A DNA stretch of 64,000 nt. Origin: Leptodactylus fallax. Lineage: Eukaryota; Chordata; Amphibia; Anura; Leptodactylidae. Under the pieces are notes generated by a model. The model had not been told where the DNA came from. It searched no databases and was given only the letters and a program-made list of their open reading frames with translations. Shown in pieces: positions 23,131 through 27,960 of the stretch. Numbering within the stretch: position 1 is the stretch's first letter; every line of letters starts with the position of its first letter. The stretch lies in contig CAMRHE010000205.1 in the NCBI GenBank assembly GCA_947044405.1, positions 1-64,000 of the forward strand, in the 5' to 3' direction. The position numbers were made by a program, and so were the translations under genes.

Positions 23131-23135
23131 TATAT

Positions 23136-23677
23136 TGTAAGTATGTGAGCCAGAGGGCGCTGTTGAGCGACCCAGGCCAGGCCAGAAAAGGCTCTCAGCC
23201 ACGCCTTTGGGTGGTGGCACGTAACTCCAGAGGGGCTGGAGCATCCTGCAGGCAGCAGGAAATGGTACTGGACCTGCTAGGACAGAGAGAGAGGTATTGT
23301 CCCAGAGGGCAGGCGTCCACAGGAGTGGACCAGCTAGGACAGAGAGAGAGGCTCTGTCCCAGAGGGCTGGCATCCACAGGAGTGGACCAGCTAGGATGGA
23401 GAGATAGGCTCTGTCCCAGAGGGCTGGCGTCCACAGAGGACTGTTGCTGGAGCTGAGCAACAGTCAGGACAGTTAGGGGCTCAAGGAGTGAGTTAGGCCC
23501 TAACTGTGGCATAGGGTTTTTGTTGTTTTCTTATGTTGCAGTTAAGCTGAATAAAGCCACTTTTATTTACACTTGGACCGTCTGAAAGCTATCTTTCCGG
23601 CGCCCAGTACCACGAACCACCGCTGTCCGGACCAGGAGTCAGCCGCCATTTTGAGTTTAATTCCCCAAATTGTCACA
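23136..23677 (+). repeat. 5' LTR of the myosin-tail element (542 bp)
   Basis: Starts TGTAAGTATGTGAGCCAG and ends ATTGTCACA. It contains three copies of a 57-bp unit (AGCTAGGACAGAGAGAG with CTCTGTCCCAGAGGGC) at about 23265-23440, and a likely polyadenylation signal AATAAA near 23550. Confidence 0.9.
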
Positions 23678-23679
23678 TA

Positions 23680-23697
23680 TGGTGGAGAATGCAGGCA
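23680..23697 (+). other. Primer-binding site, tRNA-Ala-like
   Basis: TGGTGGAGAATGCAGGCA starts two bases after the LTR. From memory it pairs with the 3' end of vertebrate tRNA-Ala at 16 of 18 positions. Confidence 0.7.
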
Positions 23698-24333
23698 TAA
23701 AGAGATCCACGCAAGTCCTGGAAGACAAGTGAATGGTGACTGCAGTACTGCTAAGTGTGCATTGTGGCCTACAGCTGGAAGAAATCGGTGATTTCAACTG
23801 AGAAGCCCAGAAAGGGGTGAGTGAATTGCAACATAGCAATGTGTGTGCAAAAAACTGGTGAAAGTAAAAACTCTGGATGAGGAATCCAGGGAATGGACTT
23901 TGTGTATACTGTGGCACAGAAGTCTGTGAAATGTTTGCTGATGGCAAGAAAGTATGCAATGTGTATAGAAGATGGATATTGCAAACAGTCTATGTGAAAG
24001 GCTATGGTGCCATGTTGGTGTTTTCTGTGGAAGACAGAAGAAAATGCTGGTTGTTGTAGTGCCACATAAGTTAACTGTGTGAATACAGGTGACTGCAGAA
24101 GATAGCAAGAAGTTGCTGCCGGTTGTATAGAAGCTCGATATTGCAAACAAGTGTATGTGAAAGGCTATGGTGCCATGTTGATGTTTTCTGTGGAAGACAG
24201 AAGAAAATGCTGGTTGTTGTAGTGCCACATAAGTTAACTGTGTGAATACAGGTGACTGCAGAAGATAGCAAGAAGTTGCTGCCGGTTGAACCCAAGGTTG
24301 CTGTGGAATATTGTGTAATCTTGTTAGTAAACC
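23698..24333 (+). other. Leader of the myosin-tail element with a ~163-bp tandem duplication
   Basis: Non-coding leader. The segment from about 23960 to 24122 is repeated at about 24123-24283, with an offset of 163 bp and few changes. It includes GCTATGGTGCCATGTTG and GAAGATAGCAAGAAGTTGC. It ends at the ATG at 24334, which sits in a good initiation context (ACCATGG). Confidence 0.75.
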
Positions 24334-27300
24334 ATGGGCAAGAAAAAGAGAATTTCAGCTTGTAAAAAAGCAGAGAGGTTATGCACAGGTTTATTAGTGC
24401 AGCAGTCTGAATGCAGAGAGATACAAAACCCGGAAAAGATCATGTTGAGTGCAAGTAAAGATAAAGGGTTGCATGATGGTGACTCAATTTTTCTAAAGCA
24501 CCTCTGTTCTATGATGGAATATGTCCCTGCTGAGTTTGTGTCTCATAATGGAGTGCATGAACGCGCCAAAGATGAAAATGTTAGGGTGCAGCAGCTTCAA
24601 GATGAGAATAAAACCATCAGGTTCATGTATGAGAATGAAATATCTGATTGGAAATGGCAACTTTTGGTATCAGAAAGAGAGAACCTTAAGTTGAAGGCAG
24701 AGCTTGACTCTATGAAGAGGTTATATCCTAGTCATTATGAAAATGTGGTACTGGGTTTGCCTGGAATGGACTGTGTCACTAAGAAGGAGTTTGCAGAAAT
24801 GAAATGTGCTCTGTCTAAGGAAGTTATACAGAGTGTAGAGCAAAAGCAAGTGCTTGAGAAGTAATTGCAGGATTTAAAGGAGCAGCGTGTTCAAGACTCC
24901 ATTGCCAAAGAGAGTGTCATTGAAAAATTAAGAGATGACCTTGAAACTGCTAAACATGAGAGAAGTGAATTTTTGCAGAGTCAGTCAGAATGTCTGGATG
25001 ACCAAGTTAGGATGTGTGTAAACCTTTCGGCTGCCTTAACTGACAAAGAAAATGAAATTGCAGAACTGAGGAAGTATGTTTCTGACCGAGAGAGTGATTT
25101 AGAATCTGTGGTGCAGACATTGCAGTCAGAGCAAAACTTGCATCAGGTTCGCCTAAATGGTGAAATCCACGAATGGCGAAGTAAAGCTGGAGTTCTGGAA
25201 CAAAGAGAAAGTGAACTCAAAGCTAGAATATGTAGCCTTGAGAGGGCGCTGTCAGGATCTTGTGAAGATAATGAGAAGTTGTCTGTTTTGGTGCAAAATA
25301 AAGACAAAGAATTGATGGAGATGTCGTCTGTCCATGCTCAGAAAGTGCAAGCCTTACAGGAGAGTCATAAAAAAGTAGAGACTCAACTTCAAGTGATGCA
25401 ACTAAAAGTCACAGAAGGGGACAGGTTTCAAGCAGAACTGCTAGACAAGGCAAATAGACTACAGGCTCAGACGACTGATATGAAGAAAAAAATGGAAGAT
25501 AGTATTGGGTCCTTGGACTCTGTTGAAGTACTAAAGGAAAGGTTGCAAAAGGAGCTAGAAGCTACAAATCAACGGTTTGAGGAGAAGGTTGCTGCTTATG
25601 ACAAACTTGAGAAGACGAAAATTAGACTGCAGCAGGAACTAGAAGATGTAGGTGTAGACCTTGATCATCAACGTCGGATGGTGTCAAATTTGGAAAGGAA
25701 GCAGAAAAAGTTTGATCAGCTGCTTGGTGAAGAGAAGACTCTTTCTGCTAGATATGCAGAAGAACGTGACCGTGCTGAAGCAGAGGCCCTTGAATTGAAG
25801 GCCGAGTTAGAGAGGCTCAACAAGCAACTGTGCACTGAAATGGAGAATTTGGTTAGCTCCAAGGATGAAGTTGAGAAAAACCTGGAATCTGTGCAGATAT
25901 TGTATGAGAACAAAGCTAATGCTTAGGACAACCTGGAAAAGGCCAAGAGAGAATTGGACCTCCAGATAGAAGACATGAAGATTCAGTTTGAGGGAAACCT
26001 GTCTAATTTGTGTGCTGAGATTGTAGATCTAAAAATGCTTGTTGCTAAACTAAAGGTGTAAGTGAACCAGCAGGAGGAAATTGCACGCATCAAGAAACAG
26101 CTGGAGTTTCAGATGGATCACGTGAAGCGTGAGTCAGAAATAAAGTTGGAAGAGCGCACTGTTCAGATAGCAGTTAAAAACTGAAGTGGAATCTAAAAGA
26201 GAAGAATTGGATCGATTGCAGCAGTCTCTATCCAATACTGAACAGTCGGCATCTGCCCTATCTTCAAAGCTGTTAGCACTAGAAGCTGAGAAGGATTCTC
26301 TGCAGAGCCTGTTAACCTCTAAAGAATCAGAGCTGCAAGGTGCACTAGTAAAGACTGAGATGGAAGCGGCACAGAAAAATGTCGCAGTGAAGAAAGTTCT
26401 GGAGCTGGAATCAGAGATTTGTGCGCTAAAGAAGGCGTTAGAATTGGAAAAAGCTGCCAGCATAGAGGCAGAGAAAGGAGAATCATTGAGTCAGACAGAC
26501 ATGAGTGACCTGTCCACTGATGTTGATACCAATGATCAGATTATGATGAAACCATGTGAGATGGTAAATAAGGTGAAGGGTCACCAAAAGTGTGGAACAA
26601 GAGTCCGTAAGAAGACTGACCACACATATGTTGTCCCAACAGCTAAAGTGTCTGAAGCCATTGTGGATAACGGTGTTGCTGTACCTGTCTCTAGCCAAAT
26701 GTCTGGTGGACAAACGGTGAATAATGACTCCATGTTGTCTGTGAAGGGGGAGTCAGGAAGTAAGAGATGGTTACATGTCACCAATAATGTGACAGTTGTT
26801 AAAGACATGCCAGAAAATGTAGTTCAGCGTGAGCTATTTTGTGAGGGCGTACGGTATGGCCCTCGTGCAGAAGGAGAAGATATTGCAGTACAGAGCTTGT
26901 GTATCTCAAACAAAGAGGAGAGCAAGAAGCCTATGTCTCCTAAACTTCTAAGCCTTGATGGTGATGGCAAAGTTTGCTTTGAGATGAAGGTTACGGAAAA
27001 AGTTCCTGTGATACAGTTATACTCTAAAGACATTGATGTGCATGAAGTACGTGTTAGTTGGTCTCTGAGCTCCTGTGAATTCATGATAGGTGAAGATGAA
27101 GATTTTTACGGCTATTCACTAAAGGGATCAAAGTCATGCAATGGGATGGCTGAAGAATATGGCGAGAAATGGGATGAAAATGATGTGATCCCCTGTATGG
27201 CGAATTGTGAAGGTGATGAAGAAAAACTTGCACAGAATGGCCAGGATCTTGGCGTAGCAGTTAAAGTGATGAGAAAAGTGATGAGAAACCAGAAGTGTCA

Positions 27301-27448
27301 AGTAACCGGAATCTGGAAGAAGAGACCGCCAGATTGGGACTTCTGGAGAGACACTGGACAGGCATACTTGGTTGAAGAGGGACTTCATCATAGCATGTCT
27401 CGTCCCATTGTAGCTCACCCCATGGGTAGTGAGCTGAGGGGGAGGGTA
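24334..27448 (+). pseudogene. Coiled-coil protein with captured non-muscle myosin II tail segment
   Basis: A single ORF of ~1040 codons from ATG 24334 (MGKKKRISACKK). It is broken by TAA 24862-24864, TAG 25924-25926, TAA near 26059 and a one-base insertion in an A run near 26173. The N-terminal ~170 residues are basic then helical and match nothing I know. From about 24870 to 26480 it is almost pure heptad coiled coil. Within it, 25375-26010 follows the order and wording of the myosin II heavy-chain rod of the MYH9/10/11 class: ADMKKKMEDS-like, EEKVAAYDKLEKTK, VDLDHQR, KQKKFDQLL, SARYAEERDRAEAEA, KAELERLNKQ, SSKDEVEKN. At least two internal stretches of the rod are missing. The C-terminal ~310 residues (26500-27448) are non-helical and acidic and I do not recognise them. 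The frame runs on into the 3' LTR. No introns are present. Confidence 0.85.
27438..27448 (+). other. Polypurine tract of the myosin-tail element
   Basis: A GAGGGGGAGGG-type purine run directly upstream of the 3' LTR, as needed for plus-strand priming. Confidence 0.75.
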
Positions 27449-27932
27449 TGTAAGTATGTGAGCCAGAGGGCGCTGTTGAGCGACCCAGGCCAGGGCAGAA
27501 AAGGCTCTCAGCCACGCCTTTGGGTGGTGGCACGTAACTCCAGAGGGGCTGGAGCATCCTGCAGGAAGCAGGGAATGGTAGTGGACCAGCTAGGACAGAG
27601 AGAGAGGCTCTGTCCCAGAGGGCTGGAGTCCACGGGAGTGGACCAGCTAGGACAGAGAGAGAGGCTTTGTCCCAGAGGGCTGGCGTCCACAGAGGACTGT
27701 TGCTGGAGCTGAGCAACAGTCAGGACAGTTAGGGGCTCAAGGAGTGAGTTAGGCCCTAACTGTGGCATAGGGTTTTTGTTGTTTTGTTATGTTGAAGTTA
27801 AGCTGAATAAAGCCACTTTTATTTACACTTGGACCGTCTGAAAGCTATCTTTCCGGCGCCCAGTACCACAAACCACCGCTGTCTGGACCAGGAGTCAGCC
27901 GCCATTTTGAGTTTAATTCCCCAAATTGTCCC

Positions 27933-27933
<1 letters not shown>
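27449..27933 (+). repeat. 3' LTR of the myosin-tail element (485 bp)
   Basis: Same ends as the 5' LTR but with two instead of three copies of the 57-bp unit, which accounts exactly for the 57-bp length difference. Apart from this it shows only a few substitutions. Confidence 0.9.

Positions 27934-27960
<27 letters not shown>
27934..27960. repeat. TA microsatellite
   Basis: A simple TA run. It continues the TA tract at 23115-23135 that was split by the LTR element. Confidence 0.9.

What the first reader, a model, noticed from the sequence alone, without database searches (positions are those of the whole stretch)
23131..27938. LTR retroelement that has captured a myosin II heavy-chain tail in place of gag-pol
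The sequence directly shows paired LTRs, a tRNA-Ala-like primer site, a polypurine tract and a TATAT target duplication. The internal ORF has none of the retroviral enzyme motifs. From 25375 to about 26010 it instead follows the rod of the MYH9/10/11 class (AAYDKLEKTK, VDLDHQR, KQKKFDQLL, YAEERDRAEAEA, LERLNKQ, SSKDEVEKN, in that order), without introns and with internal deletions. This is the layout of a transduced host cDNA, as in oncogene-carrying retroviruses, but in a transposon of an amphibian-like genome. The N- and C-terminal parts match nothing I know. Coiled-coil chains could have served as a capsid-like scaffold, but that is speculation.
Basis: partly seen in the sequence, partly recalled or inferred. 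Interest (0 to 1): 0.93.

Follow-up and report, generated by a model that had tools for sequence, protein, structure and literature searches.

The report
Retrotransposon stitched from host genes
A high-copy jumping element in what is probably a frog genome lacks the usual virus-like genes and instead carries one long protein frame stitched together from spliced pieces of at least four of the host's own genes, and the copies that spread mostly kept that frame open.

Summary
23136-27933 is an LTR element without recognisable gag or pol. Its interior is one broken frame (24334 into the 3' LTR) that is a mosaic of host cDNA: MYH9 rod in two separate captures, the HIP1 clathrin-binding coil, an unnamed host gene (J) and the HNRNPU SPRY core. 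In the window's genome (2.5 Gb, unnamed) 15 of 20 fetched LTR loci carry the same segments in order; seven further loci show sister sets with other captures and longer HIP1, J and HNRNPU pieces. The HNRNPU piece crosses three introns of the host gene without them. In 16 copies the frame has 20 stops against 1088 and 1735 in the other frames; 17 of 18 large gaps are multiples of 3; between subfamilies dN/dS is about 0.5-0.6 in the main modules. Against: four frame-breaking variants are each shared by two copies. I read it as serial, nested, in-frame capture of host mRNAs by a helper-dependent element. Helper and protein role remain unknown.

The parts
23136..23677 (+). 5' LTR (TG...CA, 542 bp, about three 57-bp tandem units, AATAAA at 23550)
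   Evidence: AATAAA read directly
23680..23692 (+). primer binding site TGGTGGAGAATGC (tRNA-Ala-like by recall)
   Evidence: a site with at most 2 mismatches was printed for 11 of the 15 loci scanned
23678..24333 (+). leader with a 163-bp tandem duplication (23962-24288)
24334..25359 (+). N module: start of the mosaic frame, unassigned, helical by sequence; first 129 codons 58% identical to a hypothetical protein of Engystomops pustulosus (P0067) that begins at the same Met
   Evidence: stop at 24862
25360..25866 (+). younger MYH9 capture (MYH9 about 1245-1515), absent from L029-L034; this copy lacks 84 codons of it at about 25457
25867..26061 (+). older coil, left half of the older MYH9-like capture; stops at 25924 and 26059
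26062..26335 (+). HIP1 capture (clathrin-binding coil), with a frameshifting 2-bp loss shared with one other copy (L012); it lies inside the older myosin capture
   Evidence: Pfam HIP1_clath_bdg on both sides of the shift; 49/55 identical to a Ranitomeya imitator HIP1-like protein
26336..26491 (+). older MYH9 capture, right half (MYH9 1079-1133), out of myosin order relative to 25360-25866
   Evidence: 33.2 bits; next best register shown in MYH9 1.0
26492..26785 (+). U module, unassigned; almost wholly missing in 4 of 16 copies, 62 codons longer in 4 and partly so in 2
26786..26961 (+). J module: piece of an unnamed host gene (P0045 residues 134-191; 45/58 identical)
26962..27271 (+). HNRNPU SPRY core, crosses three introns of the host gene without them
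27272..27448 (+). C module and polypurine tract (27436-27448); the frame runs on into the 3' LTR to 27712
27449..27933 (+). 3' LTR (485 bp)

Best explanation
This is one decayed copy of a high-copy, non-autonomous LTR retrotransposon family of an anuran-like genome whose only recognised gene is a chimeric frame built by repeated capture of spliced host mRNAs. Shown: the interior is host-derived from MYH9 (twice), HIP1, gene J and HNRNPU, in sense and in one frame, shared by LTR-flanked copies; for HNRNPU the spliced origin is shown against the donor gene. Inferred: during reverse transcription in particles of an unknown autonomous helper, the enzyme switched from the element RNA to a co-packaged host mRNA and back at short similar stretches. 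First came a piece of MYH9 rod and a long piece of HNRNPU behind the N module. Then HIP1 was inserted inside the myosin piece and J before HNRNPU. Last, in the window's subfamily, a second MYH9 piece was inserted and the older pieces were trimmed. Shown: copies that spread mostly kept the frame open. Inferred: the product, a long coiled coil with an HNRNPU-derived tail, helps the element in cis, most likely as a self-associating scaffold that stands in for Gag.
For: Host origin. Spliced origin: the HNRNPU module is continuous over four exons of the host gene in the same genome (DNA identity 100, 91, 92, 83% over 28, 104, 116 and 72 bp); the MYH9 module runs through a point where 7 of the 10 other proteins in the alignment leave myosin as translated introns would. 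Family: 15 of 20 fetched LTR loci carry the segments in the same order, some with HIP1 or U lost. J as query: 65 places with residues about 20-29 to 189-207, and one place with 624 residues, taken as the host gene (the 65 were not all read). Sister sets show subsets of the captures. Frame kept. Stops in the window copy fit decay after insertion: 3 seen, 2.3 expected from LTR age. Slippage: in 9 of 18 large gaps the end repeats are such as random placement reaches in 5% of cases or fewer.
Against: Four frame-breaking variants are each shared by two copies: one stop (L010, L020), one 2-bp loss in HIP1 (window, L012) and extra bases in two pairs (L014 and L018; L015 and L026); so some broken frames may have spread, or these arose twice. 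Amino-acid constraint inside the window's subfamily is weak (shared variants N/S 0.84 of neutral, p 0.33; shared by exactly 2 copies 1.26; by 3 or more 0.71, p 0.09). Among sister loci HNRNPU gives dN/dS 0.49-0.74, the coil 0.65-1.07, N2 0.36-2.94, C up to 3.2. HIP1, U and parts of N and M can be lost by copies that still moved. No helper was identified. SPRY is truncated in the window's subfamily and its model is of no use (pLDDT 32).
Confidence: 0.8

Rival explanations
1. The frame is kept open only because an open frame protects the RNA (a stop far from the end would expose it to nonsense-mediated decay); the protein itself does nothing.
For: Stops and frameshifts are depleted but amino-acid constraint within the subfamily is weak. 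The frame runs through the polypurine tract and in 9 of 14 copies ends 256-316 bp into the 3' LTR, leaving a short tail; in the other 5 it ends 1-199 bp in. Modules are lost in multiples of 3.
Against: Between L034 and the 16 window-subfamily copies dN/dS is 0.50-0.63 for N1, N2, coil and HNRNPU, and against the host HNRNPU gene seven sister loci give 0.07-0.35, below the 0.5 expected if only the host branch were constrained at equal rates; this expectation is my inference, and ratios among sister loci are higher (0.49-0.74 for HNRNPU).
Confidence: 0.3
2. Secondary insertion: an ordinary LTR element was hit by processed pseudogenes of MYH9, HIP1 and HNRNPU.
For: Pieces are intronless.
Against: No poly(A) tails at the joints by eye (no program run for this); all pieces lie in one strand and, but for the 2-bp loss, one frame; the same joints recur in 15 of 20 loci.
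Confidence: 0.02
3. Generic coiled-coil resemblance without descent from these genes.
For: The rod is coiled coil, where chance similarity is common.
Against: Register-specific matches (33.2 against 1.0 bits), E 2.8e-84 to MYH9 for a copy with the full stretch, 49/55 identity to frog HIP1, HNRNPU SPRY not a coiled coil.
Confidence: 0.01
4. The mosaic is a host chimeric gene that an LTR element took up in one step.
For: One continuous frame that starts at the same Met in Engystomops.
Against: Sister loci hold different subsets: HNRNPU without HIP1, J or the second MYH9 piece (L029-L032, L034); HIP1 and J without the second MYH9 piece (L033). That needs several steps.
Confidence: 0.05

Closest known systems
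Bs1 of maize
   Same: LTR element whose interior holds segments of three host genes, described as a hybrid frame (passages of reviews PMC13317346, and PMC7264820; the 2010 primary paper is not held)
   Different: Here a vertebrate-type host, at least four genes, nested and repeated captures with sister sets that suggest the order, first-look candidates in the thousands, in-frame trimming. No gag part was recognised here; that Bs1 keeps a gag part is recalled
Crocodilian ERVs with KIT ligand or nectin3
   Same: Reptile LTR elements with a captured host mRNA and signs of purifying selection (passages of PMC4299795, abstract included)
   Different: There one gene per element, KIT ligand without loss of an ERV domain and nectin3 at the expense of env; here no retroviral gene recognised and several host genes
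LTR-mediated retroposition (Tan et al. 2016)
   Same: Template switching at short similar stretches in particles puts host mRNA between LTR parts (passages of review PMC5408686; the paper itself is not held)
   Different: There retrocopies of single genes, as the review passages describe it; here a family that transmits and edits its captured frame
Acute transforming retroviruses
   Same: Host cDNA replaces viral genes and a helper is needed (recalled)
   Different: No viral gene part recognised, no oncogene, high copy number in a genome
LARD and TRIM elements
   Same: Non-autonomous LTR elements without gag-pol (recalled)
   Different: Interior is coding and its frame is mostly kept

Membership tests
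LTR retrotransposon | paired direct terminal repeats, TG...CA | tested here: met
   13 further copies with both LTRs
LTR retrotransposon | primer site after the 5' LTR and polypurine tract before the 3' LTR | tested here: met
   (tRNA identity recalled)
LTR retrotransposon | target-site duplication | tested here: met
   4 bp, exact in 10 of 13 other copies (3 of them in TA repeats), one mismatch in 2, none in 1; window copy ambiguous in a TA repeat
autonomous LTR retrotransposon or retrovirus | gag and pol | tested here: not met
   no such Pfam hit in four ORF pieces or in L034
host-gene-transducing LTR element (Bs1-like) | interior contains spliced host gene segments | tested here: met
   HNRNPU against the host gene; MYH9 by comparison with other species' genes; not tested for HIP1 and J
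host-gene-transducing LTR element (Bs1-like) | several genes fused in one frame | tested here: met
   the window copy itself has a 2-bp shift in HIP1
host-gene-transducing LTR element (Bs1-like) | descent from Bs1 itself | not tested
   likeness of kind only; no sequence compared
LARD | non-coding interior | tested here: not met
   frame over 3561 columns in 16 copies with 20 stops
acute transforming retrovirus | fusion to or presence of viral genes | tested here: not met
processed pseudogene inside an LTR element | insert private to one copy, with poly(A) and own duplication | tested here: not met
   joints shared by 15 of 20 loci; no poly(A) seen by eye

The most novel reading that the evidence does not exclude
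A vertebrate retrotransposon lineage that lives without gag and pol by serially accreting host mRNA segments into one protein and editing them in frame, so that a host-derived coiled coil plus HNRNPU-type tail has become its own functional particle or RNA-binding protein: a Gag replacement assembled from host parts.
Probability: 0.3. Interest if true: 0.95.

Novelty: new variant of a known kind. Interest (0 to 1): 0.88.

Why it matters
Host-gene capture by LTR elements is usually described as a single event. Here one genome holds sister sets that record successive captures, nested insertions and in-frame trimming, next to an intron-bearing donor gene (shown for HNRNPU). That makes open questions testable: how often template switching to host mRNA is fixed, why a helper-dependent element keeps a protein frame, and whether host proteins can take over a retroelement function. 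First-look candidates run to thousands for HIP1, HNRNPU and J, so the family may also matter for gene annotation: some 'HIP1-like' or 'HNRNPU-like' models in frogs may be this element.

Tried and rejected
Generic coiled coil, secondary pseudogene insertion and one-step uptake of a host chimera were considered and set aside (see rivals). The two other LTR elements in the window (10855-17780 and 46917-about 55000) were tested as helpers: their LTRs show no real similarity to this one, and the primer site occurs in the window without mismatch only here. No relative was found in viral contigs or, for the N piece, in bacterial and archaeal contigs. Rfam and tRNA scans of the window gave nothing. 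Structure models were useless: N piece pLDDT 49, SPRY piece pLDDT 32. Gene J has no Pfam family, and the 661-residue frame of L035 hits none at 0.001 either. The origin of N, U and C is unresolved. P0056, a myosin-like protein of Eleutherodactylus coqui, keeps a stretch that this element lacks, so it looks like an independent retrocopy, not a member. Pairwise dN/dS includes rows that are frame-shifted and meaningless (N1 against L031 and L033; C against L032), and N1 against L029 is partly so; I rely on the rows against the 16 window-subfamily copies. Locus L036 (HIP1) was fetched but not analysed. Literature: ten searches (listings) and passages of five papers showed no report of this element; subscription papers are mostly not held.
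Full report
What is there. The element spans 23136-27933 on the plus strand: LTRs of 542 and 485 bp, 15 mismatches in 485 aligned sites (K 0.032), differing by one 57-bp unit. A primer site follows the 5' LTR and a purine tract precedes the 3' LTR. The interior shows no gag or pol family. One frame runs from 24334 into the 3' LTR; the window copy breaks it with three stops (24862, 25924, 26059) and a 2-bp loss in the HIP1 part.

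Mosaic of host genes. Searching the pieces apart gave the following. The piece 24865-25926 is MYH9 rod (E 2.9e-43, ahead of MYH10 and MYH11). The piece 26062-26335 is the HIP1 clathrin-binding coil, recognised on both sides of the frameshift (profile positions 21-51 and 56-99) and 49/55 identical to a HIP1-like protein of the frog Ranitomeya imitator. The piece 26336-26491 is MYH9 1079-1133, upstream in myosin but downstream here (33.2 bits, next best register shown 1.0). The piece 26786-26961 matches an unnamed protein from an unnamed contig, P0045, 45/58. The piece 26962-27271 is the HNRNPU SPRY core (Pfam SPRY 32.7 bits; of the 47 proteins, 45 match by this part, P0045 by the J part and P0047 by the HIP1 part). 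The N module has one relative among 46 candidates, a hypothetical protein of Engystomops pustulosus that starts at the same Met (58% over 130 aligned positions).

Spliced origin. In the window's own genome the host HNRNPU gene has separate exons; the element's 310-bp module is continuous over four of them with DNA identities of 100, 91, 92 and 83%. For MYH9, 7 of the 10 other proteins in the alignment leave myosin right after KKFDQ, as expected of translated introns, while the element reads on. For HIP1 and J the host exons were not examined, though the amplified pieces are long and uninterrupted.

A family with a record of its making. The genome (2.50 Gb, 2215 contigs, unnamed; anuran by inference from the nearest proteins and size) gave 2093 first-look candidates for a 300-bp LTR piece, 40 of them scored. 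I fetched 20 regions covering 25 of the 38 full-length match rows outside the window; 13 rows were not fetched. Of the 20 loci, 15 carry N to C in the same order, some without HIP1 or U; one (L022) carries a truncated interior; four carry none. In 13 of the 15 both LTRs were recognised. In 7 of the 15 (L009, L013, L015, L016, L018, L020, L023) the younger myosin stretch is whole where the window lacks 252 bp, and in L014 and L024 partly; the one tested reads as MYH9 1270-1477 without a break (E 2.8e-84). HNRNPU, HIP1 and J as queries found 92 scored of 6399, 69 of 3327 and 66 of 2266 candidates. One HNRNPU place is the host's exon 1, and one J place with 624 residues is taken as the host gene; of the rest I read seven loci. 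Four of them (L029-L032) and L034 join N directly to the older coil and to a longer HNRNPU piece, without HIP1, J or the younger MYH9. L033 has long HIP1, long J and HNRNPU and no younger MYH9; L035 has HIP1, J and HNRNPU but nothing recognisable in the 223 bp before HIP1. The simplest order is: N with older MYH9 and HNRNPU; then HIP1 inside the older MYH9, and J; then the younger MYH9 with trimming of HIP1, J and HNRNPU in the window's subfamily. This order is inferred from presence and absence, not from a tree.

The frame was mostly kept. In 16 copies (window plus 15) the frame shows 20 stops over 3561 columns, against 1088 and 1735 in the other two frames. Gaps of 12 bp or more form 18 events once one split run is merged; 17 are multiples of 3, the exception being 28 bp in one copy; some of these overlap and are not independent, and private insertions are not among them. 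Of 56 gaps under 12 bp private to one copy only 6 are multiples of 3; of 5 small gaps shared by copies, 2 are. Private variants look neutral (102 synonymous, 295 replacement, 16 stops; 18.8 stops expected). Variants shared by two or more copies include 1 stop where 7.4 are expected (p 0.005), with replacement to synonymous 0.84 of neutral, not significant. Split further, those shared by exactly two copies give 1.26 and those shared by three or more 0.71 (p 0.09), with no stop where 4.0 are expected (p 0.02). Between L034 and the 16 copies dN/dS is 0.58 (N1), 0.56 (N2), 0.50 (coil), 0.63 (HNRNPU) and 0.80 (C); among sister loci HNRNPU gives 0.49-0.74 and the coil 0.65-1.07. Against the host gene, HNRNPU gives 0.07-0.35 in seven sister loci and about 0.52 on average in 15 window-subfamily copies (0.74 in the window copy). 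Against a strict rule, four frame-breaking variants are each shared by two copies: a stop in L010 and L020, the 2-bp loss in the window copy and L012, and extra bases in L014 and L018 and in L015 and L026. They are inherited or arose twice; if inherited, some broken frames moved. So an open frame was selected on the whole, amino acids moderately between subfamilies and weakly within the window's subfamily. The stops of the window copy fit decay after insertion (3 seen, 2.3 expected from its LTR age); its frameshift may be older.

How it works. Capture by template switching during reverse transcription in a helper's particles is inferred from spliced origin, sense orientation, one frame, and repeat-flanked gaps: 9 of 18 events have end repeats that random placement reaches in 5% of cases or fewer. 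The helper is unknown. I favour a product that acts for its own RNA, as a coiled-coil scaffold with an HNRNPU-type tail, over mere RNA protection, mainly because of the between-subfamily constraint; this step is not shown.

Standing among known things. It works like maize Bs1 and like retroviral transduction, and it is an LTR retrotransposon by structure. It is not an autonomous element, a LARD or a transforming retrovirus by the features tested. The held library showed no report of such a vertebrate family (ten searches, listings; passages of five papers), so novelty is stated with that limit.

Noticed in passing
window 10855-17780: Another LTR element with repeats 99% identical and a 1087-codon open gag-pol-like frame (by eye); LTRs unrelated to the finding.
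   Followed up: partly
window 46917 to about 55000: Retrovirus-like element with broken pol-like frames (by eye); repeats identical over 291 bp; LTR also begins TGTAAG.
   Followed up: partly
window 345-1253, 37282-37884, 38948-40016, 50435-51522, 62124-62791: Several Tc1/mariner-like transposase frames (by eye), some long and open.
   Followed up: no
window 32354-33846: 397-bp tandem repeat, 3.8 copies, 82% matches.
   Followed up: no
L038 (G000:C69:2494332-2496209): Single place matching 624 residues of J with an uninterrupted 693-residue frame and no Pfam family; taken as donor of the J module.
   Followed up: partly
L018 interior: A private 1293-bp insertion inside the HIP1 module of one copy.
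   Followed up: no
P0056, Eleutherodactylus coqui: Annotated 'myosin-11-like' of 215 residues that looks like an independent, frame-shifted myosin retrocopy.
   Followed up: partly
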